NCBI GenBank assembly: GCA_030841025.1
Contig: JAVEDJ010000015.1
Span: 1-37,658 of the forward strand
Origin: Actinomycetota bacterium
GTDB taxonomy: Bacteria > Actinomycetota > Actinomycetes > JACCUZ01
Direction of reading: 5' to 3'
DNA: 37,658 nucleotides
Shown one piece after another: positions 3,218 through 37,591 of the stretch (positions are counted from its first letter, which is position 1; each line of letters starts with the position of its first letter). The position numbers and the translations under genes are program-made. The notes below the pieces were generated by a model. The model had not been told where the DNA came from, made no database searches, and saw only the letters and a list, made by a program, of their open reading frames with translations.

Positions 3218-3333
3218 GACACCGGTCTCAACGGGGAACGAAGTTCGAACGCTTCCTACCCAAGGCGCGGACAGCTGATCATGACTGGTCGTCGATTCGG
3301 TAAGGCAGTACCCGGCCTCACGGGGTGCGTCTG

Positions 3334-4107
3334 ATGGAGGCGCTGATCCTCGCTGCCGGTGAGGGCTCTCGGCTGGAAGTTGATGTCCCCAAGTGCCTGG
3401 TCGATGTCGGTGGCCAGCCGCTGCTCAACCGCCAGCTCGATGCGTTGGAGGAAGTCGGCGCTGACGAGATCACTGTGGTCGTGGGGCATGAGCACGAGCA
3501 GGTGCGCGAGGTCGCGGACAAGCGCGCGCGCATGGTGGTCAACGAGCGGTACGCACAGACGAACAGCCTTTACTCCTTTTGGCTCGCCCGGCACCGGGTG
3601 CCGGACGAGCTGTTGCTGCTCAACAGCGACGTGCTGTTCCCGACCGCGCTCGTGCATCGCCTGCTGACCGTTCGCGGTAGCGCGTTGGCCTATGACTCCA
3701 GCTCGGGAGACGACGAGGAGCACATGAAGGTGCGCCTGAGCTGGGGTCGGCTTCGTGGCATGAGCAAAGCGATGCCGCAGACCGACACCGACGGCGAGAA
3801 CGTAGGCATCTTGCGGCTCGCTACCAGCGAAGCGGAAGCCGCCTTCGCGGCGGCAGAAGGCCTGGTCCGCGAGGGTTGCGTCGACGACTGGGTGGGCGCT
3901 GCGATCAGCGAAGTCGCGCGCCGACACGTGATCACCTGCCTGGACGTCGCCGATCTGCCGTGGGTCGAGATCGACTTTCCGGAGGACCTCGCCCTCGCCC
4001 GAGATGAGGTGTGGCCGGCCATCGCCGCACTCGGGACCGCCGCTGCTGGTGGCGCAGGCCTGCGGAGCACGGGCTGGCAAGAGACTGCGAGAGAGGTAGC
4101 GATATGA
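3334..4107 (+). CDS. LicC-like sugar/phosphoalcohol nucleotidyltransferase
   Basis: This 257-aa protein belongs to the NTP-transferase fold that activates a phosphorylated sugar or alcohol with a nucleotide. The N-terminal LAAGEGSRL and PKCLVDVGGQPLL form the nucleotide-binding loop, NSDVLF supplies a likely metal-binding Asp near residue 99, and TNSLYSFWLAR resembles LicC-type phosphocholine cytidylyltransferases. WVEIDFPEDLALA near the C-terminus is also typical. ATG 3334 gives the standard N-terminus; GTG 3325 is an alternative, and neither has a strong ribosome-binding site. The stop codon overlaps the next start as ATGA, so the three genes 3334-6244 are translationally coupled. With the neighbouring glycerophosphotransferase, it probably makes a CDP-activated alcohol or related donor. 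Exact substrate is inferred, not shown. Confidence 0.85.
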   Translation: MEALILAAGEGSRLEVDVPKCLVDVGGQPLLNRQLDALEEVGADEITVVVGHEHEQVREVADKRARMVVNERYAQTNSLYSFWLARHRVPDELLLLNSDVLFPTALVHRLLTVRGSALAYDSSSGDDEEHMKVRLSWGRLRGMSKAMPQTDTDGENVGILRLATSEAEAAFAAAEGLVREGCVDDWVGAAISEVARRHVITCLDVADLPWVEIDFPEDLALARDEVWPAIAALGTAAAGGAGLRSTGWQETAREVAI

Positions 4108-5174
4108 CCCGAATCCTGTTCACCGGGTACGCGCCCGTGCACTTCGTCTGCTTCCGCCCTTTGTACGAGGCACTGTCCGCCGACCCGAGCAATGAGGTGC
4201 TGGTCTCGGGAGGAACACGGCACGTAGACGAGGCCGGGAACAGGCAGCACGACACAGCCGACATGTATGCATCCTTCGACCTGCCCCCAGAGAGCGTCGT
4301 CGACTACGACGAGCTTCCTGATCTCGATGTCGACGTACTGGTGTCGGCCTGCACCAAGCCGATCAAGCCGCGCAGCTATGCGGAGACCGTGCAGATCTTC
4401 CACGGGCTGTCGTTTCGAAACCGTGCCATCCGCAGCCAGAACACCCACTACGACAACTACCTGATGCTCGGCCCGTACATGGTGCGAACCTTCGAGCGAC
4501 GGGGTCTCTTTGCGAAAGGAGATCCTCGCGTCTCAGAGATCGGATTTCCCAAGACCGACCGCCTCCTCAACGGGACTCTCGACCGTGCGTCGGTGCTGCG
4601 GGAGCTGGGCTTCTCCGGCGATCGCCCAGTGGTGATGTTCGCCCCGACCGGAGCGCACGGAAACGCCATGGAGGTGCATGGCGAGGAGCTGGTGAAGTAC
4701 TTCACCGAGACCCAGGAGTACGACCTGCTGGTGAAGCCCCATGACCATCCCAAGGCCGACGTCGACTGGTTCGACCGTCTGGCGCCGCTGGAGAGTGAAC
4801 ACACCCGCTTGCTTCGCGAGTTCGACTCGATCCCGTCCTTGTTCGCCACGGACGTCCTCATCAGCGATGCCTCGTCCATCGCGAACGAATATCTGCTGCT
4901 CGATCGGCCGCTGGTCTTCCTCGACGTTCCTGCGCTGCTGGAGTCGGCCGCTGGCGAGGATGACCGGTTGGACCTGGACACCTGGGGACGCAAGGGCGGA
5001 ACCGTAGCGCATGACGTGGCGGAAGCGGAACGGGCCGTCGCGTCCGCGCTTGCGGACCCCGACCGGCTCTCCTCCGTGCGCCAGTCGATCACCCAAGACC
5101 TGTTCTTCAACCCAGGCAGCGCCACCGAGGCTGCCGTAGCCTGGTTCCGTGACCAGGCGAGGTTGAGTGCATGA
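4104..5174 (+). CDS. CDP-glycerol glycerophosphotransferase-like protein
   Basis: The 356-aa product fits the TagB/TagF-type polyol-phosphate transferase family (PF04464), which transfers glycerol-phosphate or similar units from CDP-activated donors onto a growing surface polymer at the inner membrane face. Visible family features are QIFHGLSFRN (residues about 98-107, the conserved His-Gly), FAPTGAHGN, KPHDHP and the nucleotide-binding ISDASSIANEYLLLDRPLVFLD near residues 253-275. The start ATG 4104 overlaps the previous stop (ATGA) and follows GAGAGAGG; the ORF-track start at 4011 lies inside the upstream gene. Its own stop overlaps the next start the same way. At about 356 aa it is a single-domain form, shorter than TagF fused to a glycosyltransferase. 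Acceptor and donor are not determinable from sequence. Confidence 0.88.
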   Translation: MTRILFTGYAPVHFVCFRPLYEALSADPSNEVLVSGGTRHVDEAGNRQHDTADMYASFDLPPESVVDYDELPDLDVDVLVSACTKPIKPRSYAETVQIFHGLSFRNRAIRSQNTHYDNYLMLGPYMVRTFERRGLFAKGDPRVSEIGFPKTDRLLNGTLDRASVLRELGFSGDRPVVMFAPTGAHGNAMEVHGEELVKYFTETQEYDLLVKPHDHPKADVDWFDRLAPLESEHTRLLREFDSIPSLFATDVLISDASSIANEYLLLDRPLVFLDVPALLESAAGEDDRLDLDTWGRKGGTVAHDVAEAERAVASALADPDRLSSVRQSITQDLFFNPGSATEAAVAWFRDQARLSA

Positions 5175-6244
5175 CCGATCTGCTCAAGTCGGGCCGTCAG
5201 GCGCGTTCGGCGTACCGCTTCCTGAAGTCCTACGGCCGGCCGCACCGCCGCCACCTGACTGCGGGCGCTGCCCTTACCGTGGCGCTGGTCGCGGCCCGGC
5301 TGGCGTTTCCGTGGCCGTTGCGTGGACTGATGGAGATCGTCTTCCACCAGGGGGCCCCCGGCCGGGCCACCGGAGTCGTCGACGTCGTCCCGCAGGCCGG
5401 CGACCCGAAGTACTGGCTCATCGGAGCCTTCCTTGTGATCGTCTTGATCTGGGGTGTCTCAGAGTCTCTGCAGCGCCTACAGTTCACCAGGTTTGCCGTT
5501 GGGCTCGTGCACGACGTTCGACGCAAGGCGATCGGGAAGGTGTCGGCTGACGCCACGACCGCTTCGCCCGGCGACCTGATCTCCACCATCACCGGAGACA
5601 CCAGTCGTCTCAAGAGCGGCATCACCTCGATCCTCATCGGCGTCTCACGCAACGGCATGTTCTTCCTCGGTGTCGCCGTCATCGTCACGCTGATCGACCC
5701 GGTGATAGGGCTGGTGTTCCTCGGCGGGGGACTTGCCACCGTGGCGGCCAGCGCCATCGGCGCGGCGCGCTCGAGACCCATCAGCCGCAAGTCACGCCTT
5801 CGCGACGGAGCATTGGCCGAGGACCTGCACCGCTACCTTGCAGGCGAAGCCGACCTGGAAAAGCCACAGCCCCGCCGTGGAAAGCCTGACTCCAAGACCA
5901 CTCGGGTCGAGGGGCTCACGACCTTCGTGGTGCACGCCATCCTCGGCATCTCCACGTGCATCATCCTGATCCTGACGATCCAGGCCGGTCAGAGCGGGAA
6001 GCTTTCGCCCGGTGCGGTGTTCACCGTGCTGGCCTACATCCTGCTGATGCACAACAAGACCGTCAGCCTTGGCCGCAGCGTCGTGCGCGCGGGGCGGGTG
6101 CTGCCGAGCATCAAGCGGATCTCCACGCTCGTGCGGAAGTCGAACGGGCCCCCTGGAGACGCCGGTGCCGACGACGACCGCGCCTGGCCGGCTCCGCGGG
6201 ACGGCAGACACCCCGAGTCGGCCGGGCAGCACCGGCGGTCTTAG
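5171..6244 (+). CDS. ABC exporter membrane domain lacking its ATPase domain
   Basis: This 357-aa protein matches the transmembrane half of type-I (MsbA-like) ABC exporters. Hydrophobic helices lie near residues 30-50, 77-97, 150-190 and 258-300, and GDLISTITGDTSRLKSGI is the typical cytoplasmic coupling region between helices 2 and 3. The frame ends soon after LPSIKRISTLV, the point where an ATP-binding domain normally follows, in a low-complexity Pro/Arg/Asp-rich tail. I searched the next few hundred bases in all three frames by eye and found no Walker A, signature or Walker B motif. It starts at ATG 5171, overlapping the previous stop by ATGA. It may use an ATPase encoded elsewhere, or be a truncated gene. 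A region of lower helix (about residues 205-255) also looks shortened and highly charged. Confidence 0.8.
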   Translation: MTDLLKSGRQARSAYRFLKSYGRPHRRHLTAGAALTVALVAARLAFPWPLRGLMEIVFHQGAPGRATGVVDVVPQAGDPKYWLIGAFLVIVLIWGVSESLQRLQFTRFAVGLVHDVRRKAIGKVSADATTASPGDLISTITGDTSRLKSGITSILIGVSRNGMFFLGVAVIVTLIDPVIGLVFLGGGLATVAASAIGAARSRPISRKSRLRDGALAEDLHRYLAGEADLEKPQPRRGKPDSKTTRVEGLTTFVVHAILGISTCIILILTIQAGQSGKLSPGAVFTVLAYILLMHNKTVSLGRSVVRAGRVLPSIKRISTLVRKSNGPPGDAGADDDRAWPAPRDGRHPESAGQHRRS

Positions 6245-6668: not shown

Positions 6669-7388
6669 ATGCAGCTGATCGGGTTCCTGGGCGGTATGAG
6701 CTGGGAGTCCTCCGCGGAGTACTACCGGCTGGCCAACGAGATGGTCCGGGACCGCTGCGGCGGTCTGCACTCGGCTCGCTGCCTGCTGTACTCCGTGGAC
6801 TTCGCTGCCATCGAGCGCATGCAGGTCGACGGGCGCTGGGACGACGCCGCGACCGCCCTCGTGGAGGCCGGCGGGGCGCTGCAGGCGGCTGGCGCAGACT
6901 TCATCGTGCTGTGCACCAACACGATGCATCGCGTCGCTGACACCCTCGCAGACGCGGTCGACGTACCGGTCCTGCACATCGGGGACACCACTGCGGCCGC
7001 CGTGGTCGGCGCCGGGGTGCACCGGGTCGGGTTGTTGGGCACGGAGTTCACCATGGCCCAGCCGTTCTACGCCGACCGACTCGCCAGCCACGGTCTGGAG
7101 GTCCTCGTTCCTGATGAGGCCGATCGGGCCACGATTCACCGCATCATCTATGACGAGCTCTGCCTGGGCATGGTGCGTGAGGAGTCGCGAGACGCCTACC
7201 GGCAGGTTATTCGCCGGCTCGTGGCCGCGGGCGCCGAGGGCGTGATCTACGGCTGCACCGAGATCGAGCTGCTCGTCGGGCCGCAGGACAGCCCCGTTCC
7301 CGTGTTCCCGACCACCCGACTACACGTCGAAGCGGCGGTCGACAGGGCAGTCACCGGTGCCGTGGTCCGGCGGCCCGAGCTGCCGTAG
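6669..7388 (+). CDS. Aspartate/glutamate racemase family protein
   Basis: This 239-aa enzyme belongs to the cofactor-independent Asp/Glu racemase superfamily, which interconverts L- and D-amino acids using two cysteines. The N-terminal GGMSWESSAEYYR, the first catalytic cysteine in LCTNTMH (Cys82) and the second in YGCTEIELL (Cys196) are all intact, and the length is normal. The best match by motif is the aspartate racemase/YgeA subgroup rather than MurI. A TAGGCT at 6618-6623 could be its -10 element with a leader of about 40 bases. It may supply a D-amino acid for cell-surface polymers, consistent with the operon just upstream, but that is inference. A hairpin follows the stop. Confidence 0.92.
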   Translation: MQLIGFLGGMSWESSAEYYRLANEMVRDRCGGLHSARCLLYSVDFAAIERMQVDGRWDDAATALVEAGGALQAAGADFIVLCTNTMHRVADTLADAVDVPVLHIGDTTAAAVVGAGVHRVGLLGTEFTMAQPFYADRLASHGLEVLVPDEADRATIHRIIYDELCLGMVREESRDAYRQVIRRLVAAGAEGVIYGCTEIELLVGPQDSPVPVFPTTRLHVEAAVDRAVTGAVVRRPELP

Positions 7389-7394
7389 GGAGCC

Positions 7395-7416
7395 GGTCGG
7401 CTGGGCCCGGCCGAGC
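7395..7416 (+). terminator. GC hairpin after the racemase gene
   Basis: TCGGC and GCCGA pair around TGGGCCCG just 8 bases after the racemase stop codon. There is no T tract, so termination is plausible but unproven. Confidence 0.35.
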
Positions 7417-7549
7417 GCCCTGATGACAGAGCCCCGAATCCGAGGCAGAGTGACAGAAGCTCGACGCTTCATCGGTCCTCGAGTAGTCAGGGGCGGTGGG
7501 CTAGCCCGCGTCGCCAAGCGGTGACCCATTGCCGCACCGGGGAGAGACG

Positions 7550-9304
7550 ATGTCACGACGGCCCGATCCGCTGATCAGTGCGCGCCGGGACCACGCGGGC
7601 TCGGTGCTCCTGTCAGCGGCAGTTGCGTTGCTGCTGGCCCTGGCCGGCTGCACCGGCAGCGCCGGCGGAGAGTCGCGCTCGACGGCGTCGAGAGGTAGCA
7701 CCACGGACAAGCAGGGTACGGCGGCCTCCGTGGCGGGCGCCGCGCTCGCGGCTGCGCCGTCCGGCGAGCCGATGCCGCGCGGGAACGTGCCGGGTTGGAC
7801 CAAGGTCTTCGCCGAGGACTTCGTGAGGGATGTGCCGGTGGGCCGCTTCCCCGGCAAGGTGTACGGCGCCCGGTGGGGCGCCTACAAGGACGGCTGGAAA
7901 GACACGACAGGACGCGGGACATACCTGCCCTCCAAGGTCCTGTCCACCCGGGGTGGTCTGCTGGACTACTCCATCCGCACCGAGAACGGCGTGCACATGG
8001 TGTCGGCCCCGACACCCAAGCTGCCCAAGGGCGCCTACGGGCGTTACTCGGTGCGCTTCCGTGTGGACCCCCTGCCCGGCTACAAGACGGCCTGGCTGCT
8101 GTGGCCTGACTCAGGCAACTCCCCACCCGACGGCGAGATCGACTTCCCCGAAGGGAACCTGAATGGTCCGATCAGCGCCTTCCTGCACCATGCCGACCGG
8201 TCCGGGCGACAGGAGAGTTTCCCCACCCGGGCGCGATACCCGACGTGGCACACCGCGACCACCGAGTGGGTCAAGGGCAGGGTGACGTTCATCCTCGACG
8301 GACGGGTCATCGGCAGGTCGACGACGAAGGTGCCGGACAGGCCGATGCACTGGGTGCTGCAGACCGAGACCGCGACCGAGGGCAGCAAGCCCAGCGCCAA
8401 GACGGCCGGTCACGTGCAGATCGACTGGGTGGTGGCCTACCGGCCGGCGAGCAGGACAAAGCCGTTGCCAGCGCTCGGGAAGGGCGCGCTGCAGGTCGCG
8501 GCCGTCGGGGACATCCAGCCTCCGTCCCGCAGCAAGAACTCCGCAGGCACCGCCGCCGTGGCAGCCAAGGCGGACTTCATCCTGGGCCTGGGTGACTACC
8601 AGTACGAGAACGGAGCGATGTCGCAGTACAACGCCTACTTCGACAGGGACTGGGGCCGCAACGTCGCAAAGACCTACCCGGTCCTTGCGCCCAACCACGA
8701 CCAGGACTGGAGCGGTGGCGATCCGCTCCGCTACTGGAACGGGGGAGGGGCGAAGGGCTACCGGGCACCGGTGCGGCTCAAGCCGCACCAGTCGTACAGC
8801 TTCGACAGAAATGGCTGGCACTTCCTCGCGATCGACGACGCGTGCTACCGCGCCCCGGACAGGTGCTCGCCCGACAGGTTGCGGGCGTGGGTCAAAGCCG
8901 ACCTGGCCGCCCACCAGAGCCGGTGCACCGTGGCCTACTGGCACCAGCCCTACTTCACGAGCACAGCCGGCCACCCCGCCTACGAGCCGATGAAGCCAAT
9001 CGTTCGACTGCTGCAGGCTCGTGGTGTCGACATCGTGCTCCAGGGCCACAACCACAACTACGAGCGGTTCGCACCGCAGACGGCCGACCGGGTCGCGAGC
9101 CGCCGAGGCATGCAGGCATTTGTCGTCGGCACGGGTGGTATCGGGTTCTACGCCTTCAAGGACAAGGCAGCCAACTCCGTCAAGCGCACCGACAGCACGT
9201 ACGGCGTCCTGCGGCTGACGTTGGGCAAGGGCCGCTACGGATGGCAGTTCGTCCGCACGGGAGGAACTCCCTTTGCCGACAGCGGGACCGCGAGGTGTCA
9301 CTGA
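7550..9304 (+). CDS. Lipoprotein: GH16-like domain fused to a metallophosphoesterase
   Basis: The 584-aa product has a signal sequence ending in a lipobox (LALAGC, about residues 22-27), so it should be a lipid-anchored surface protein. Residues about 83-298 resemble a GH16/concanavalin-type glycan-binding or hydrolase domain, with EIDFPE near residues 196-201 matching the GH16 ExDxxE catalytic motif. Residues about 313-584 resemble a calcineurin-like metallophosphoesterase: VGDIQ, LGDYQYE, NHDQD, WHQP and GHNHNYER supply the expected metal ligands, though GDxH is replaced by GDIQ. ATG 7550 is chosen because GGGGAGAG precedes it by 4 bases; the ORF-track start adds seven residues. The downstream gene overlaps its stop by 10 bases. 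The combination suggests an enzyme acting on a phosphorylated surface glycan, which is inference. Confidence 0.85.
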   Translation: MSRRPDPLISARRDHAGSVLLSAAVALLLALAGCTGSAGGESRSTASRGSTTDKQGTAASVAGAALAAAPSGEPMPRGNVPGWTKVFAEDFVRDVPVGRFPGKVYGARWGAYKDGWKDTTGRGTYLPSKVLSTRGGLLDYSIRTENGVHMVSAPTPKLPKGAYGRYSVRFRVDPLPGYKTAWLLWPDSGNSPPDGEIDFPEGNLNGPISAFLHHADRSGRQESFPTRARYPTWHTATTEWVKGRVTFILDGRVIGRSTTKVPDRPMHWVLQTETATEGSKPSAKTAGHVQIDWVVAYRPASRTKPLPALGKGALQVAAVGDIQPPSRSKNSAGTAAVAAKADFILGLGDYQYENGAMSQYNAYFDRDWGRNVAKTYPVLAPNHDQDWSGGDPLRYWNGGGAKGYRAPVRLKPHQSYSFDRNGWHFLAIDDACYRAPDRCSPDRLRAWVKADLAAHQSRCTVAYWHQPYFTSTAGHPAYEPMKPIVRLLQARGVDIVLQGHNHNYERFAPQTADRVASRRGMQAFVVGTGGIGFYAFKDKAANSVKRTDSTYGVLRLTLGKGRYGWQFVRTGGTPFADSGTARCH

Positions 9305-13922: not shown

Positions 13923-15272
13923 TCAGGTGGCGGCCACGCCCATGTCCCGGACGGTGTCCTGTGCCGTCCGCAGGCGCGGGTTGTCCGGCCACAGCGAACG
14001 GGCCTCGCGCAAGGCCGAGGCCGACTCCTCCTCCTGTCCGAGGCCGGCCAAGGCCTCGGACAGGGTGACGAGGTCGTCGGCGCGTCGCGGGCGGTCGACG
14101 TCCCACTGGATGGCCTCGCGGGCGTGCTGGGCCGCCTCGGCCAGTCGGCCGTGCACCAGGTGGTGCAGCGCGTGCGCGCCGGCGAGCACCGTGCCGGTGC
14201 TCGCCAAACGCTGGGCATCCTGCAACGTCGCGGCGACCTCGTCCTCGTGGCGGTCGAGGCTGAGCTGGCCGGCCTCGATGCCGAACAGCAGCGCGAAGAC
14301 GTGCGCCGTCAATGCGTCGAGGCGGGCGCCGCGGCTGCGTCCGGCGTTGTCGACCAGCGTGCGGGTCGCCTTCGCGGCCTCGTCGAAGCGACCCTGGCCG
14401 CGCAGCGAGTCGGCCAGGGCCAGCAGCGCTGCGGGATCTGTGGGCTTGCTGCGGAGCCGGTCCCGGGCATGCAGCTCGGCCTGCGCCAGGTCACCCTGCT
14501 CGAGCGCCTTGTTGGCGGCCGAGGCGGAGCGGCGCGGGATCTTGCTTCCGAGCCACACCAGCGGGTCGTACTGCGTGTCCACAACGCGCTCCTTCATGGG
14601 GATGATCGCGTTGTCTGTGATCTTGATGTGCTCGGGGCAGACCTCGGTGCAGCACTTGGTGATGTTGCACATCCCCAGTCCGTGCTGAGACTGCGCCTCA
14701 CGCTTGCGGTCGCGGGTGTCCAACGGGTGCATGTCCAGCTCGGCGAGCCGGATGAAGAACCGCGGGCCGGCGAAGGCCTCCTTGTTCTCCTCGTGGTCAC
14801 GGATGACGTGGCACGTGTCCTGGCACAGGAAGCACTCAATGCACTTACGGAACTCCTGGCTCCGCTCGACATCCACCTGCTGCATGCGGTACTCGCCCAG
14901 GGCCAGGTCGGCCGGCGGCGCGAACGCCGGCACCTCGAGTGCCTTCTGGTAGTTGAACGACACATCGGTGACGAGGTCCTTGATGACCGGGAACGTCCGC
15001 AGCGGCGTGACGGACACGACCTCGTCCTCGGCGAACGTGCTCATGCGCGTCATGCACATCAAGCGGGGACGCCCGTTGATCTCCGCGCTGCATGAGCCGC
15101 ACTTCCCGGCCTTGCAGTTCCAGCGCACCGCCAGGTCCGGCGTCTGCGTGGCCTGCAGCCGGTGGATGATGTCGAGCACGACCTCGCCGTCGTTCACCTC
15201 GACCCTGAAGTCCTCGAGCTCGCCGTCCCTGTCGTCACCGCGCCACACCTTGAATCGTGCGTTGTAGCTCAT
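13923..15272 (-). CDS. sdhB: Succinate dehydrogenase iron-sulfur subunit with TPR-like extension
   Basis: Residues 1-248 are a complete SdhB, the electron-transfer subunit of succinate dehydrogenase. The [2Fe-2S] cysteines are Cys53, 58, 61 and 73 (CKAGKCGSC...RLMC); CIECFLCQDTC (144-154) and CNITKCCTEVCP (202-213) hold the [4Fe-4S] and [3Fe-4S] clusters. SdhB proteins usually end near 250 aa; this one continues in frame to 449 aa. The extra ~200 residues are Ala/Leu-rich helices with TPR-like repeats, for example ALEQGDLAQAELHARDRLRSKP, DEAAKATRTLVDN and LAEAAQHAREAIQWD, each with the Gly/Ala spacing of TPR units. ATG 15272 shares one base with the sdhA stop (TGATG), so the pair is coupled; the ORF-track start lies inside sdhA. 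What the extension binds is unknown. Confidence 0.93.
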   Translation of the reverse strand: MSYNARFKVWRGDDRDGELEDFRVEVNDGEVVLDIIHRLQATQTPDLAVRWNCKAGKCGSCSAEINGRPRLMCMTRMSTFAEDEVVSVTPLRTFPVIKDLVTDVSFNYQKALEVPAFAPPADLALGEYRMQQVDVERSQEFRKCIECFLCQDTCHVIRDHEENKEAFAGPRFFIRLAELDMHPLDTRDRKREAQSQHGLGMCNITKCCTEVCPEHIKITDNAIIPMKERVVDTQYDPLVWLGSKIPRRSASAANKALEQGDLAQAELHARDRLRSKPTDPAALLALADSLRGQGRFDEAAKATRTLVDNAGRSRGARLDALTAHVFALLFGIEAGQLSLDRHEDEVAATLQDAQRLASTGTVLAGAHALHHLVHGRLAEAAQHAREAIQWDVDRPRRADDLVTLSEALAGLGQEEESASALREARSLWPDNPRLRTAQDTVRDMGVAAT

Positions 15273-17164
15273 CAGGCGTTCCCCTCCGGCAGGATCGCGA
15301 GCTCCTCGTCGGTCATGTACTTGTTCAGCTCGTCTCGTTCGAACAGTGAAAGCAGCTCCGGCGGCATCACCGGGAGCGGCTGCTGATCGATCCGGACGCC
15401 CTCGTCCTCCGGCCGGCAGACCAGGTTGACCTTGCGCCACTCCGGACTCATGGCCGGGAAGTCGTCCCGCGTGTGCCCGCCTCGCGACTCCTCACGGATG
15501 AGGGCCGACCGCGCGATGCACTCGGAGACGATCAGCATGTTGGTCAGGTCGAGGGCCAGGTGCCACCCGGGGTTGAAGATCTTGTCGCCGGCGACACTGA
15601 TGCGCTTGGCCCGCGACTTGAGGTCCTCGAGCTTGGCCAGCGCCTCCTCCATCTCCTCGCGCTTGCGGATGATGCCGACCAGGTCGTTCATCGTCTGCTG
15701 CAGGTCGGAGTGGATCGTGTAGGGGTTCTCGCCCCCGTCGCCGTCGAAGGGCGCCTCGGCGGCCCGCCGCGCCTCCTCGACGTCGCGGTCGCTGACCGTG
15801 GGACGAGCAGTGCCCAGGGAGTCGATGTAGGCGCTCGCGCCCGCCCCCGCGCGGCGCCCGAAGACCAGCAGGTCGGAGAGGGAGTTCCCGCCCAACCGGT
15901 TGGAGCCGTGCATGCCGCCCGAGCACTCGCCTGCGGCGAAGAGGCCGGGTACGACGGCGGCCGCGGTGTCGGGGTCGACCTCGATGCCGCCCATGACGTA
16001 GTGACAGGTCGGGCCGACCTCCATGGGCTCGGCCGTGATATCGACGTCGGCAAGCTCCTTGAACTGGTGGTACATCGAAGGCAGCTTCTTGCGGATCGCC
16101 TCGGCGGGCAGCCGCGAGGCGATGTCGAGGAAGACGCCTCCTGCCGGCGAGCCGCGCCCGGCCTTGACCTCCGAGTTGATCGCACGGGCCACCTCGTCGC
16201 GCGGCAGCAGCTCAGGTGGTCGGCGGTTGTTCTGCGGGTCCTCGTACCAGCGGTCGGCCTCTTCGGGCGTCTCGGCGTACTGCTTGCGGAAGACCGCGGG
16301 CACGTAGTCGAACATGAACCGCTTGTCCTCGGAGTTCTTCAGGATGCCGCCGTCACCACGCACCGACTCGGTGACGAGGATGCCCTTGACGCTCGGCGGC
16401 CACACCATGCCCGTGGGATGGAACTGCACGAACTCCATGTTGAGCAGGCTCGCGCCGGCCTTCATGGCGAGAGCGTGCCCGTCGCCGGTGTACTCCCAGG
16501 AGTTGGACGTCACCTTGAACGACTTCCCGATGCCCCCGGTGGCGAGGATGACGGTCGGCGCCTCGAAGACGACGAAGGTGCCGTTCTCCCGCAGGTAGCC
16601 GACCGCGCCCGCGATCCGGTCACCGTCCTTGAGCAAATCCGTGACGGTGCACTCGGCGAAGACCTTGACCATCGACTCGGCGTCGCCGTACTCACGCTGA
16701 TCTTCCTGCTGCAGCGACACGATCTTCTGCTGAAGGGTGCGGATCATCTCGAGCCCGGTGCGGTCCCCGACATGTGCCAGCCGGGGGTACTCGTGACCGC
16801 CGAAGTTGCGCTGGCTGATCTTGCCGTCCTTGGTGCGGTCGAACAGCGCGCCGTAGGTCTCGAGCTCCCACACCCGGTCGGGTGCTTCCTTCGCGTGCAG
16901 CTCCGCCATGCGCCAGTGGTTGAGGAACTTCCCACCGCGCATCGTGTCGCGGAAGTGCACCTGCCAGTTGTCGTTGGGGTTGACGTTGCCCATGGCGGCT
17001 GCCGCGCCGCCCTCTGCCATGACGGTGTGCGCCTTGCCGAACAGTGACTTGCAGACGATGGCGGTGCGCCTTCCCTGCAAGCGGGCTTCGATGGCCGCGC
17101 GCAGACCGGCACCACCGGCGCCGATCACCACGACATCGAAGGTGTGGCGTTCGATCTGGGTCAT
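15272..17164 (-). CDS. sdhA: Succinate dehydrogenase flavoprotein subunit
   Basis: This 630-aa protein is the catalytic flavoprotein that oxidises succinate to fumarate on the inner face of the membrane. VVVIGAGGAGLRAAIEA is the FAD dinucleotide-binding loop, and His46 in GKAHTVMAEGG is the expected covalent FAD attachment site. FHPTGMVWPPSVKGILVTESVRGDGG and GSNRLGGNSLSDLLVFGRRAG are the substrate-side and flavin-side family motifs. Length and motifs are those of the actinobacterial enzyme that pairs with a single large cytochrome b. The start ATG 17164 follows GAGGAAG at about 8 bases. It is the middle gene of sdhC-sdhA-sdhB, 47 bp after sdhC and overlapping sdhB by one base. Confidence 0.96.
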   Translation of the reverse strand: MTQIERHTFDVVVIGAGGAGLRAAIEARLQGRRTAIVCKSLFGKAHTVMAEGGAAAAMGNVNPNDNWQVHFRDTMRGGKFLNHWRMAELHAKEAPDRVWELETYGALFDRTKDGKISQRNFGGHEYPRLAHVGDRTGLEMIRTLQQKIVSLQQEDQREYGDAESMVKVFAECTVTDLLKDGDRIAGAVGYLRENGTFVVFEAPTVILATGGIGKSFKVTSNSWEYTGDGHALAMKAGASLLNMEFVQFHPTGMVWPPSVKGILVTESVRGDGGILKNSEDKRFMFDYVPAVFRKQYAETPEEADRWYEDPQNNRRPPELLPRDEVARAINSEVKAGRGSPAGGVFLDIASRLPAEAIRKKLPSMYHQFKELADVDITAEPMEVGPTCHYVMGGIEVDPDTAAAVVPGLFAAGECSGGMHGSNRLGGNSLSDLLVFGRRAGAGASAYIDSLGTARPTVSDRDVEEARRAAEAPFDGDGGENPYTIHSDLQQTMNDLVGIIRKREEMEEALAKLEDLKSRAKRISVAGDKIFNPGWHLALDLTNMLIVSECIARSALIREESRGGHTRDDFPAMSPEWRKVNLVCRPEDEGVRIDQQPLPVMPPELLSLFERDELNKYMTDEELAILPEGNA

Positions 17165-32172: not shown

Positions 32173-32754
32173 ATGGCTGGCCTTGACGGTGCACCGCACC
32201 TCGTCTCCGCCGGCCTCCTCCCCGAGCGGCACCTGAGCTCGGCCGGCTCCGCGCCGGCGCCGGCGCCGGCCGCGGAGGAGCTCGCCGCGTCCGGGGGCGT
32301 CCTGCTGCGTCTGGGCGGCTCCCGCTTCGTCGTCGACATGGCCGACGTCGCCGAGGTCGCCGCTCTGCCATCGGCGACCCGGCTGCCCGGGGCTCCACCA
32401 TGGCTGGCCGGTGTCGCCAACTGGCGCGGTCGCGTGCTCCCGCTGCTGGACGTACGCAGTCTCGTCGGCGCGCCCGTGACCCCCCTCGCATCCAGTGCCC
32501 GGCTCGTGGTCATCGCAGGCGGCGGGCAGGGCGGGCAGAGCGAGCTCACCGCCGGGCTGGTGGCCGAGGCGGTCCCCGGTGTGTACGACGGCGCGCTCGA
32601 CGTCCTTGCGGCCCCGCCGGCCACGTTGCCGGCACAGGCGGCGCAGGTCGTCCGCGGTCAGGTCGCCGACGCCCTGGGGCCGATCGCCGTCCTCGACGTC
32701 GCGGCTTTGCTCAGGCTGCGCGAGCTGGTCGACCGCCGCAGGCACGGCAGCTGA
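32173..32754 (+). CDS. CheW-like chemosensory coupling protein
   Basis: The 193-aa product carries a CheW domain, the adaptor that links receptors to the CheA kinase. From about residue 38, VLLRLGGSRFVVDMADVAEV, WLAGVANWRGRVLPLLDVRSLVGAP and GPIAVLDVAALL follow the CheW beta-barrel pattern; the NWRG turn is the receptor/kinase contact region. The first ~37 residues are an extra Ala/Pro-rich segment with an APAPAPA run encoded by a repeated GCGCCG hexamer. ATG 32173 has no strong ribosome-binding site, and GTG or ATG codons further in could be used instead. It is the first gene of the chemosensory cluster, 7 bp after the DUF6113-like gene, with 120 bp before the receptor gene. Confidence 0.85.
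   Translation: MAGLDGAPHLVSAGLLPERHLSSAGSAPAPAPAAEELAASGGVLLRLGGSRFVVDMADVAEVAALPSATRLPGAPPWLAGVANWRGRVLPLLDVRSLVGAPVTPLASSARLVVIAGGGQGGQSELTAGLVAEAVPGVYDGALDVLAAPPATLPAQAAQVVRGQVADALGPIAVLDVAALLRLRELVDRRRHGS
32251..32270 (+). repeat. GCGCCG hexamer tandem repeat inside the CheW-like gene
   Basis: Three tandem GCGCCG units encode the alternating Ala-Pro linker of the CheW-like protein. Unit gain or loss would keep the frame and change linker length. Confidence 0.6.
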
Positions 32755-32874
32755 GCGGGGCGCACGCGCGTACGCGAACCCCCGTTCGGCCTACAGATGC
32801 GGTCCCGTTGGACCGATGCCACGAGTGCGTGTCGTGTCCCTCGCGGCGCGCATCGTTCCGGCTGGAGGCCTTCG

Positions 32875-34419
32875 GTGGAGTTCTGGAAGATGCTCAACCG
32901 CGCGTCCACGGTCACCCTCGCGGTGAGCGTGCTCGTCGCGGCGTCGGGCGTCGTGGCCGACAAGACGGCTGGCGCCGACTACTCGAGCGCCGCCGCTGCG
33001 ATGTGGCTCGCGGTCGGCCTCGTGAGCGCCGGTGCCCTCGGTGCCCTCACCCTGCTCGGCACCCGCCTGATGGAGGACCGCGCCCGGCTGGAGCGCTTCC
33101 ACACCGGGCTCATCGTCGCGAACATCATCTGGATCGCCGGCCTGGTCTCCGTGACGGACGGCCTCGACCGCCCCTACTGGGCACTTGTCACCGCGCCACT
33201 GCTGATCGCTGCCGTCTCCATGAGCAGGACGCGGAGCCTGATCCTCAGCTTGTTCGCGACGGCGGCCATCATGGTGGCCGTGCTCGCCTCGGGGCCGATC
33301 ACGCAGCACGAGATCAGCTTCCTGATCGTCGTGCTGCCGGTCGGGCCCGGCGTGTCGTGGTTCGTCGGCCTGCTCTACGCGTCGGTCTCCAACGAGCGGC
33401 GCATCGCCCGCGAGGAGCGCGACGACCTCCGGCAGCGCGTCGACGACCTCTCCGCCGTGCTCGCGCAGGCGGCCGAAGGCGACCTCGCCGTGCAGGTCAC
33501 GACCGAGGGCGCCAGCGAGTCGGTGCTGGCGCTTACCGCCTCCTTCAACAACACGTTGCTCAACCTGCGCCACCTCGTCGAGCAGATCCGCTCGGGCGGC
33601 GAGCAGATCACCGCGAGCGCCGGCGAGCTGCTCGCCACCGCCGAGGAGCACGCTGCCAGCGCCACCGAGCAGTCCTCGGCTGTCGCCGAGACCACGTCCA
33701 CGATCGAGGAGCTGGCCGCCACGGCGGCGCAGATCGCCGACACCGCCGAGTCGGTGGCGCGCTACGCCGCCGAGACCCTGCGGCACGCCGAGCACGGCCG
33801 GACCGCCGTGGCGACGTCTGTGGCCTCGATGGACGCCATCTCCGAACGGGTCAACTCCATCGCCAGCCGCGCCTTGTCGCTGGGGGAGAAGGGCCAGGAG
33901 ATCGGCCGCATCCTCGAGGTCATCGACGACATCGCCGACCAGACCAACCTGCTCGCGCTGAACGCGGCCATCGAGGCCGCACGCGCCGGTGAACACGGCC
34001 GCGGCTTCGCTGTCGTCGCCGCCGAGGTGCGCAAGCTCGCCGAGCGGGCCCAGGAGGCGACCGGTCAGATCCAGGCGATCGTCGCCCAGATCCAGGCAGA
34101 GACCAACGCCACCATCCTGGCCAGCGAGGAGGGCGCCAAGGAGGTCGCGGGAGGCGCGTCCCTGGCCCGCGACGTGGTGGACGCCCTGGAGCGCATCTCC
34201 GGCATGGTCGACGAGACCACCACGGCAGCCAAGGAGATCTCGATCGCGACCCAGCAACAGCGATCGGCCTCCGACCAGGTCGTGTCGGCCATGACCCAGG
34301 TCTCCGACGTCTCCCGGCAGTACGCCGTGGGCTCCAAGCAGTCCGCAGCGGCCGCCGCTCAGCTGAACGTCCTCGCCGCTGAGCTGCGATCCTCGATCGA
34401 GCAGTTCCGGGTCTCATGA
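32875..34419 (+). CDS. Methyl-accepting chemotaxis protein with polytopic membrane sensor
   Basis: The 514-aa receptor has no large external sensor domain. Instead the first ~170 residues contain about six hydrophobic helices (near 10-28, 41-64, 76-95, 102-118, 122-141 and 147-171), suggesting it senses something in or at the membrane. A HAMP-like stretch (residues about 172-215, [23 protein letters not shown]) leads into a long coiled coil. The signalling tip, [42 protein letters not shown], is canonical and should bind CheW and CheA. GTG 32875 has GGAGG 6 bases upstream; the ORF-track start lacks one. It overlaps cheA by ATGA. No CheR-binding pentapeptide is seen at the C-terminus. Confidence 0.95.
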
Positions 34420-36608
34420 GCAAGAGCTGGGCCGACGACCCGGAGCTGGTGGCAACGTTCCGCGCGGAGGTCGACGAGCGGCTCGGCACCTTGTGCGAGG
34501 GCCTGTTGCGGCTCGAGCACGACCCGTCGCCGCGGCAGCTGGTGGCCTCGCTGTTCCGCGACGCACACACCGTCAAGGGCACCGCCCGCATGCTCAGCCT
34601 CGACAGTGTTGTCGAGGTGGCGCACCGGGTCGAGGATCTCTTGGGCGCCATCCGCAGCGGTCGCATGACACCGCGCCGGGACCTCGTCGACCTGTTGCTG
34701 GTCTCTGCCGAAAGCATCTCCCGCTCGCTGCCGGGCGCCGAACGGCCGGTGGACGCCGACGAGGTCGCAGCCGTTGTCGCGGCCCTCGACTCTGCCTGCG
34801 CGGGCGAGGACCCCGTCACCGTCCCGCGGCTGCGGGTCACCGATGTCGAGGACGCCGACGAGTCCGGCCGGCCCCGCGGGGGTGACTCGGTGCGCGTCCC
34901 GACGCGGCGCGTCCACGAACTGCTCGAGGTCGTGGGCGAGGCCGAGCTCGACGTACGCCGCATCACCACCCACAGCCGCGAGCTCACTGGCCTGACCCGG
35001 CGTCAGCTGCACTCGGCGCGCGCGCTGCGCGACGCCGCCGCGGCCGACGACGCATTGCCCACCTCGGTCACCGACGCCTTGCACGCGCTGGTCTCGCTCG
35101 GCGACCAGCTCGTTGCCGCCAGCCGCGAGCTGGCCGCGCGCGCGGAGGACGCGGACGGCCGGCTTGCGCGCGTCCGCGACGGCGCGATGGGCCTGGCCAT
35201 GGTCCCGGTACGTCGGGTCGTCGCCGGCTTCCCGCACCTGGTGCGCGAGCTGTCCGCGGCCGGTGACCAGCCGCGCGAGGTGCAGCTGGTGCTCTCCGGG
35301 CAGGACGTCGAGCTCGACACCCGTGTCCTGGACGCGGTTGCCGACTCGCTGCAGCACCTCGTGACCAATGCGGTCGACCACGGCTGCGAGACGCCGGCCG
35401 AGCGGGTCGCCTCGGGGAAGCCGGCCCGGGCCACCGTCACAGTCGCCGCGCGAGCTGCGGGCTCGACTGTTGTCATCGAGGTCTCCGACGACGGCCGCGG
35501 CATCGACGAGGAGAGCCTGCGGGCCGTCGCGGTCAGCCGCGGGCTGCTGCCGGAGGGCTCGACGGCCACCGGTACACCGTTGCTGCAGGTGATGTTCTCG
35601 CCCGGTTTCTCGACTCGCTCGGAGGTGACGCAGACGTCGGGCCGCGGTGTCGGGCTCGACGTGGTGCGCACCGTGGTCGAGGACCTCAGCGGTGCCATCG
35701 ATGTCGCGTCGAAGTCCGGGCTCGGCACGACGTTCACCCTCACCCTTCCGGTGACCCTGGGCGTGCTGCGGTGCCTGATCGCGCGGGTGGGGACCGAGCG
35801 GTACGCCGTGCCGGTGGCGGGCGTCATCGAGACGCTCGGGCTGGCGGGTGCGGAGCGCCACGAGGTCGCCGGTGTCCCCGTGCTGGCCCGGCAGGGCGTG
35901 ACCATGCCGCTGGTCGACCTCGGGCAGATCCTGGAGGCGCCGGGCGACCGTGACCCGCGGTCGGCGATCGTGGTGCATTACTCCGGCTCGGACGAGCTGC
36001 TCGCTCTCGCCGTCGACGCGCTCGAAGGGGAGGCTGAGCTGGTCGTGAAGGAGCTCGGCGGCTTCCTGGGTCGGCTGCCGACGGTGACCGGAGCGACCAT
36101 CGACGGGGATGGGAGCGTCGTGCTCGTCCTCGACGTCCGCGAGCTGGCCGTGCGCCAGCTCGCCGGCGGCGTCGCCCACGCACCCGCAGCCCCGCGTCGT
36201 CGTACCTCGGGTGGGACCGTGCCCCTGCACCCCGGAGGCCGGGCGCGGGTGCTTGTCGTCGAGGACTCCGTGGGCGTCCGCGAGCTGCAGCGGGTGATCC
36301 TCGAGGGCGCGGGCTACGAAGTCGTGACAGCGGTCGACGGCATGGACGGCGCCGCGCGCCTCACCGAGGCGCCGGTCGACCTGGTGGTCTCCGACGTGGA
36401 GATGCCGCGGATGGACGGTTTCACCCTGACCCGCACGATCCGCCGTACGCGCGGCTGGGAGGACGTGCCGGTCGTGATCATGACTTCGCGCGGGGACGAG
36501 GCCGACCAGCGGGCCGGGCTGGACGCAGGAGCCAGCGCCTATCTGCTCAAGAGTGAGTTCGACCAGGCCGAACTCATCGATACGGTCCGACGACTCGTCG
36601 GCCGCTGA
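34416..36608 (+). CDS. cheA: Hybrid CheA histidine kinase with C-terminal receiver domain
   Basis: The 730-aa protein is a CheA-type kinase fused to a CheY-like receiver. Domains in order: Hpt (residues 1 to about 105) with phospho-His51 in HTVKGTARM; a dimerisation region (about 155-290); HATPase from about 311 with [25 protein letters not shown] and GRGVGLDVV; a CheW-like domain (about 450-585); and a receiver (about 608-730) with [15 protein letters not shown] (phospho-Asp near 660), MTSRG and a Lys in LLKSEF. No P2 (CheY-binding) domain is visible between Hpt and dimerisation, consistent with in-cis phosphotransfer. It overlaps the receptor gene by 4 bases and is followed 20 bp later by the receiver-GAF gene. 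All catalytic residues look intact. Confidence 0.95.
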
Positions 36609-36628
36609 CGCTCGAAGCGAGGATCCCG

Positions 36629-37591
36629 ATGCCCACCGTCCTGATTGCGGACGACAGCCCCACGATGCGCCGCATCGTGTCCACGGTGCTCGAGCGCGCC
36701 GGCCACACCGTCGTCACGGCCGAGGACGGCGTCGAGGCAGTCCAGGGGGCGTTCCGCTGCCAGCCGGACGCGATCATCCTGGACGTGCAGATGCCGCGTC
36801 TGTCGGGCTATGTCGCCGCGCGGCTGCTCAAGGACGACTGGCAGACCACGGAGATCCCCATCGTGCTGCTGACGTCGCTGGACGCCGCCTCGGACCGCTA
36901 CTGGGGCGCGCAGACCGGTGCCGACCGCTTTCTGACCAAGGACTTCGAGGCACCCGAGCTGGTCCAGGCGCTGGCCGAGGTCATCCGGGCCGCCGACGAG
37001 GCACGTGGGGGCCGACCTCCGCTGCGGCCCGACCCGCTCGAGCTGGGTCCGGACGAGGTGTTGGCGCGGGTCTCCGAGCTGCTCGACCGCAAGCTGTTCG
37101 AGGCGTCGCTGTCGGCCGAGGTCACGCAGATCGCGGCCGACGTCCACGGCTTCGAGGAGACCGTCGCCGGTGTCCTCGGTGTCCTCGCCCGGGTGGTCGA
37201 CTACGACATGGCGGCCGTCTGCATGCTCGACGACCGGGCGACCTACCTGACGGTCGTGCGCGACAGCTCGCAGCAGCAGTACCACGAGTTCTTCGGCGCC
37301 ATCGCCGACGCCGCCACCCAGGTGACCGGGACACCGGTGATGGTGCACGACCTGGTCCCACGGATCGCCGACGCTGAGGGCCGGTTGGGAGCCGACGACG
37401 AGGGCCGCATGGCGACGTTCCTGTCCATGCCGCTGCGGGCCGGCGGACGCATCGTGGGCTGCCTCGCTCTCTCGAGCGCCACCAAGAACGCATTCGGGGA
37501 GGCCTCGCTCAACACGCTGCGCCTCGTCGAGCAACCGGCCGCCGTCGTCATCAGCAACGCCCGCCTCGCCGGGCACACCACCCACGCCTGA
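36629..37591 (+). CDS. Receiver-GAF response regulator
   Basis: This 320-aa protein starts with a CheY-like receiver (residues 1-120): IADDSPTMRRIV, the phospho-Asp in ILDVQMPRLSG near residue 52, LLTSLD and the conserved Lys in FLTKDFEAPEL. After a short linker, residues about 170-315 resemble a GAF domain, with FEETVAGVLGVLARVVDYDMAAVCMLD and FLSMPLRAGGRIVGCLALSS. There is no DNA-binding, GGDEF, EAL or kinase domain, so its output is probably protein contact or ligand-gated signalling. ATG 36629 follows GAGG at 7 bases. It is the last complete gene in the window and likely receives phosphate from the CheA just upstream; downstream partners are out of view. Confidence 0.92.
   Translation: MPTVLIADDSPTMRRIVSTVLERAGHTVVTAEDGVEAVQGAFRCQPDAIILDVQMPRLSGYVAARLLKDDWQTTEIPIVLLTSLDAASDRYWGAQTGADRFLTKDFEAPELVQALAEVIRAADEARGGRPPLRPDPLELGPDEVLARVSELLDRKLFEASLSAEVTQIAADVHGFEETVAGVLGVLARVVDYDMAAVCMLDDRATYLTVVRDSSQQQYHEFFGAIADAATQVTGTPVMVHDLVPRIADAEGRLGADDEGRMATFLSMPLRAGGRIVGCLALSSATKNAFGEASLNTLRLVEQPAAVVISNARLAGHTTHA

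What the first reader, a model, noticed from the sequence alone, without database searches (positions are those of the whole stretch)
7550..9304. GH16-like domain fused to a metallophosphoesterase in one lipoprotein
Seen: lipobox LAGC, then EIDFPE (GH16-like), then GHNHNYER (phosphoesterase-like) in one uninterrupted 584-aa frame. The pairing suggests trimming of a phosphate-bearing glycan at the cell surface, matching the polymer operon 1.3 kb upstream. The first phosphoesterase motif reads GDIQ instead of GDxH.
Basis: partly seen in the sequence, partly recalled or inferred. Interest (0 to 1): 0.6.

Follow-up and report, generated by a model that had tools for sequence, protein, structure and literature searches.

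The report
Glucanase–phosphatase fusion on a surface lipoprotein
An actinobacterium carries one predicted surface protein that joins a sugar-polymer-cutting domain to a phosphate-removing domain; both halves look intact and are common on their own, but I found them joined in no other genome searched, so this is a rare new pairing rather than a new kind of enzyme.

Summary
Window 7550-9304 (+) is one 584-aa frame with a lipobox (LAGC), a GH16 domain and a calcineurin-like phosphoesterase domain. Both halves model with high confidence (pLDDT 95.5 and 93.1). The first matches GH16 laminarinases, the second purple acid phosphatases (PAPs). Catalytic E196/D198/E201 and metal-ligand positions D321, D349, Y352, N382, H465, H500 and H502 are in place. 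The pairing is rare: about 1,200 genomes, 40 further loci, plasmids and phages gave only separate halves. The halves have different nearest kin. The tie to the upstream polymer cassette is weak: two related genomes keep that cassette without this gene. Better support for glycan work: stand-alone GH16 relatives sit beside exopolysaccharide genes in 9 of 21 lineages (0 of 20 control stretches), and one genome has a GH16 and a PAP lipoprotein tail to tail there. Best reading: a surface bifunctional hydrolase acting on exopolysaccharide, probably phosphate-bearing. Substrate and cooperation of the halves are inferred, not shown.

The parts
7550..9304 (+). 584-aa fused lipoprotein gene (GH16 + purple-acid-phosphatase-like)
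   Evidence: uninterrupted frame; coding-type GC3 of 0.88; GGGGAGA before the ATG
7550..7651 (+). lipoprotein signal peptide, lipobox L-A-G-C with Cys34
   Evidence: read directly from the translation: Arg-rich start, hydrophobic stretch, LALAGC
7745..8467 (+). GH16 domain (residues about 66-306); catalytic motif E196-I-D198-F-P-E201 at 8135-8152
   Evidence: Pfam, profile against PDB, AlphaFold2, Foldseek; E196 and E201 in 41 of 41 relatives
8468..8494 (+). short linker between the domains (about residues 307-315)
   Evidence: stand-alone GH16 relatives end near residue 300-305 and PAP relatives begin near 311-316
8495..9301 (+). purple-acid-phosphatase-like domain (residues about 316-584); motifs GD321IQ, GD349YQY352, PN382HD, H465, GH500NH502
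   Evidence: Pfam, profile against PDB, AlphaFold2, Foldseek, column counts
3325..6244 (+). nearby cassette: MobA-like nucleotidyltransferase, Glyphos_transf (PF04464), ABC membrane half; possible but unproven context
   Evidence: Pfam; conserved in G001 and G006 without the fused gene

Best explanation
This is a cell-surface lipoprotein with two working hydrolase domains: an N-terminal GH16 endo-glycanase (retaining mechanism, E196/D198/E201) and a C-terminal dinuclear-metal phosphatase/phosphodiesterase of the purple-acid-phosphatase type. It most likely arose by fusion of a GH16 lipoprotein gene with a secreted PAP gene of a different lineage. It most likely acts on exopolysaccharide at the cell surface: the GH16 half cuts the backbone, and the PAP half removes phosphate groups or phosphodiester-linked substituents from the same or nearby glycan. 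Domain identity and intact residues are shown by computation. Export to the membrane, activity, substrate and cooperation of the two halves are inferred.
For: Domains and catalytic residues. [quoted passage not shown] Stand-alone GH16 relatives lie near glycosyltransferases, a Wzx-like flippase or a polytopic polymer-assembly-like protein in 11 of 36 loci (9 of 21 lineages), against 0 of 20 control stretches at the same cut-off (Fisher p = 0.004), and again in several further genomes. Genome G009 has a GH16 lipoprotein (49% identical) tail to tail with a PAP lipoprotein beside two GT2 genes. PAP relatives are often joined to carbohydrate-binding or adhesive modules: CBM96, F5/8C, PA14, fn3, PKD, laminin-G.
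Against: The fusion is seen in one genome only, so no conservation supports a joint function. The window itself holds no GT2 exopolysaccharide cluster, and the phosphopolymer cassette upstream is conserved elsewhere without this gene. In G281, same genus as G009, the GH16 locus lacks the PAP. No substrate-specific residues were tested. The comparison with 20 control stretches does not fully correct for relatedness of the loci.
Confidence: 0.45

Rival explanations
1. Two independent nutrient-scavenging hydrolases on one lipid anchor: the GH16 half releases sugars from beta-1,3-glucan-like polymers, and the PAP half releases phosphate from organic phosphate such as inositol phosphates or nucleotides. 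The two do not share a substrate.
For: GH16 best matches are beta-1,3-glucanases. PAP matches include plant phytase and TRAP. In a Nitrospirae bin the nearest PAP gene overlaps an ABC exporter gene and lies just upstream of a myo-inositol-1-phosphate synthase gene. The fusion is not conserved.
Against: GH16 relatives repeatedly sit in polymer-assembly loci. One genome pairs GH16 and PAP lipoproteins next to glycosyltransferases.
Confidence: 0.3
2. The GH16 half serves mainly as a glycan-binding anchor that places the PAP on a polymer, as CBM96, F5/8C or PA14 modules do in relatives; its hydrolysis is secondary or lost.
For: PAP relatives carry many binding modules in the same N-terminal position.
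Against: E196, D198 and E201 are all kept, as in 41, 38 and 41 of 41 rows.
Confidence: 0.12
3. Trimming of the phosphate-bearing polymer made by the cassette at 3325-6244.
For: Same strand, 1.3 kb away; PF04464 transferases typically make polyol-phosphate polymers (for the domain; family role from own knowledge).
Against: The cassette is kept in G001 and G006 without the fused gene; a racemase gene intervenes; simple polyol-phosphate chains have no glycosidic backbone for GH16.
Confidence: 0.1
4. The fusion is an assembly error of a draft contig.
For: Draft assembly of 433 contigs; the fusion is in one genome only; the halves have different nearest kin.
Against: The join is in frame, falls at the domain boundaries with a short linker, and has smooth GC; the downstream half has no ATG or export signal of its own.
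Confidence: 0.03

Closest known systems
GH16 beta-bulge (ExDxxE) endo-glycanases, laminarinase type (e.g. PDB 8va4, 6xof, 3atg)
   Same: beta-jelly-roll fold, GEIDFPE catalytic strand, about 15-21% identity over the domain
   Different: fused to a phosphatase; the close relatives form a lipoprotein/secreted clade often found near exopolysaccharide genes; subfamily number not assigned
Purple acid phosphatases (e.g. PDB 1war, 5uq6, 6git; M. tuberculosis Rv2577)
   Same: fold, and positions of the seven metal-ligand residues including the GDXXY tyrosine
   Different: GH16 stands where plant-type PAPs and Rv2577 have their PAP N-terminal domain; one extra residue in motif III (APNHD instead of GNHE)
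Secreted PAP-like proteins with CBM96, F5/8C, PA14, fn3 or PKD modules
   Same: module plus PAP-like phosphatase in one protein
   Different: partners there are binding or adhesive modules; here it is a catalytic glycanase
Exopolysaccharide-associated glycanases such as ExoK/ExsH of Sinorhizobium (from own knowledge; papers listed were not read)
   Same: glycanase encoded with polymer assembly genes (relatives)
   Different: no sequence comparison with ExoK/ExsH was made; they are not fused to a phosphatase as far as I know

Membership tests
GH16 | beta-jelly-roll fold of clan GH-B | tested here: met
   AlphaFold2 pLDDT 95.5; Foldseek E 7e-14 to GH16 structures
GH16 | ExDxxE (beta-bulge) or ExDxE catalytic motif | tested here: met
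   E196-I-D198-F-P-E201; both Glu in 41 of 41, Asp in 38 of 41; motif meaning from PMC6827312
GH16 | Pfam PF00722 above gathering score | tested here: met
   31.5 bits against cut-off 22
GH16 | glycanase activity and CAZy subfamily | not testable with these tools
   needs assay and CAZy subfamily models
[quoted passage not shown]
   D321, D349, Y352, N382, H465, H500, H502; motif III reads PNHD, not GNHD
Purple acid phosphatase | fold closest to PAP among metallophosphoesterases | tested here: met
   top 21 Foldseek hits are PAPs, best E 2e-16
Purple acid phosphatase | Fe(III)-M(II) centre, purple colour | not testable with these tools
   needs purified protein
Bacterial lipoprotein | signal peptide with lipobox [LVI][ASTVI][GAS]C | tested here: met
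   LAGC, Cys34, read by eye; no signal-peptide predictor on hand
Part of the upstream phosphopolymer system | gene kept with the cassette in relatives | tested here: not met
   G001 and G006 have the cassette without it; the G006 contig ends about 1.1 kb past the cassette's matched part

The most novel reading that the evidence does not exclude
A single enzyme that depolymerises and dephosphorylates the same phosphorylated exopolysaccharide at the cell surface, a coupled phosphoglycan processor not described before, with the tail-to-tail GH16/PAP pair of G009 as its unfused counterpart.
Probability: 0.25. Interest if true: 0.55.

Novelty: new variant of a known kind. Interest (0 to 1): 0.35.

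Why it matters
If the two halves share a substrate, the fusion points to phosphorylated exopolysaccharides in actinobacteria and gives a ready-made enzyme for probing them. It also gives the uncharacterised GH16 lipoproteins beside exopolysaccharide genes, and the secreted PAP-like proteins with sugar-binding modules, a joint and testable role.

Tried and rejected
GDIQ as a lost catalytic motif: rejected. Among the 32 aligned rows that cover the motif the fourth residue is mostly Ala (20), then His, Gly, Ser. The 616-aa L078 protein as a second fusion: rejected, its C-terminal part is Ig-like. Hits that start inside the GH16 part (in G677, G644, G441, G1003, G1039) as possible fusions: rejected, profile scans of those loci find only the PAP domain. 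A mixed alignment of both halves (A1) misaligned the PAP-only rows and was dropped for separate alignments. Literature searches for the pairing found nothing relevant. A promoter and terminator scan found none. Neighbourhoods of the three nearest PAP relatives are not shared with one another beyond the gene.

Full report
What is there. Window 7550-9304 (+) is a single 584-aa open frame with coding-type GC3 and GGGGAGA just before its ATG. It starts with a signal peptide ending in LAGC (Cys34). Pfam finds GH16 at residues 162-294 and Metallophos at 316-504, both above curated cut-offs.

The N half. An alignment of 41 rows keeps E196 and E201 in all and D198 in 38, the beta-bulge ExDxxE motif of GH16 (PMC6827312). 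The profile finds beta-1,3-glucanases and laminarinases in the PDB (E 8e-15). AlphaFold2 gives pLDDT 95.5 and pTM 0.90, and Foldseek's best hits are GH16 enzymes (E 7e-14, TM about 0.7).

The C half. An alignment of 71 rows gives a profile whose best PDB matches are purple acid phosphatases (E 9e-24). AlphaFold2 gives pLDDT 93.1 and pTM 0.92; Foldseek's top hits are mammalian and plant PAPs (E 2e-16). The ligand positions are D321, D349, Y352, N382, H465, H500 and H502. [quoted passage not shown] So GDIQ is normal for this type. A real small peculiarity is motif III, APNHD with one extra residue, shared by the nearest relatives.

How rare is the pairing. Searches of 98, 395, 397, 11 and 299 genomes (partly overlapping), one scan of the species collection (40 loci), plasmids and phages gave only one half per protein. 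Profile scans of the 160 loci then held found the fusion only in the window's own copies. Eukaryotes and UniProt were not searched. So the statement is: absent from the sets searched, not absent from nature.

Origin. In a maximum-likelihood tree the PAP half groups with proteins from a Nitrospirota bin and a Rokubacteriota bin (100/98; 58-60% identity; a third bin, L077, is alike) and apart from 66 other PAP rows, all of the window's phylum. The GH16 half groups, with weaker support (93/88), with Frankiales bins. This suggests fusion of genes of different descent; the bins could hold misassigned contigs, so transfer between phyla is not proven.

Context in the window. Upstream lies a three-gene cassette: nucleotidyltransferase, Glyphos_transf PF04464 and an ABC membrane half (3325-6244), then an Asp/Glu racemase (6669-7388). 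The same-genus genome G001 keeps the cassette at 71-79% identity and G006 keeps a more distant form; neither genome has the fused gene or a close racemase relative. The link to that cassette is therefore weak.

Context of relatives. Around stand-alone GH16 relatives I found GT2 glycosyltransferases, a Wzx-like protein or a polytopic assembly-type protein in 11 of 36 loci, from 9 of 21 lineages, against 0 of 20 control stretches from four genomes at the same cut-off (one weaker GT2 hit at 1e-7; Fisher p = 0.004, relatedness not fully removed). A further set of loci shows the same in at least five genomes. In G009 a GH16 lipoprotein (49% identical) stands tail to tail with a PAP lipoprotein beside two GT2 genes; its congener G281 lacks the PAP there. 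PAP relatives often carry CBM96, F5/8C, PA14, fn3, PKD or laminin-G modules.

Mechanism. Shown by computation: two complete folds with catalytic residues. Inferred: export as a lipoprotein, both activities, exopolysaccharide as substrate, and cooperation. I put 0.45 on exopolysaccharide processing with both halves active, 0.3 on two independent scavenging activities, and small values on a binding-only GH16, on the upstream polymer as substrate, and on an assembly error.

Verdict. Both halves belong to well-known families; the pairing is new to the sets searched. New variant of a known kind, interest 0.35.

Noticed in passing
window 3325-6244: Nucleotidyltransferase / Glyphos_transf / ABC membrane-half cassette, kept in G001 and G006; the ABC protein has no ATPase domain in its 357 aa.
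   Followed up: partly
L161 8179-9303 (-) and the GH16 frame 6814-8166 (+) before it: In G009 a GH16 lipoprotein and a PAP lipoprotein lie tail to tail next to two GT2 genes: an unfused counterpart of this protein.
   Followed up: partly
L051 3044-7400: In a Nitrospirae bin the nearest PAP gene overlaps an ABC exporter gene by 4 bases and is followed by myo-inositol-1-phosphate synthase; not shared with L052.
   Followed up: partly
window 13923-17164 (-): Succinate dehydrogenase/fumarate reductase flavoprotein with an Fe-S subunit that carries a C-terminal TPR part.
   Followed up: no
window 32173-37591 (+): Chemotaxis block: CheW, MCP, CheA with CheW and receiver domains, then a receiver-GAF protein.
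   Followed up: no
L078 2867-4714 (+) and 1770-2903 (-): Two GH16 genes side by side in opposite orientation; one carries Big_7 and Big_5 Ig-like domains after the GH16 domain.
   Followed up: no
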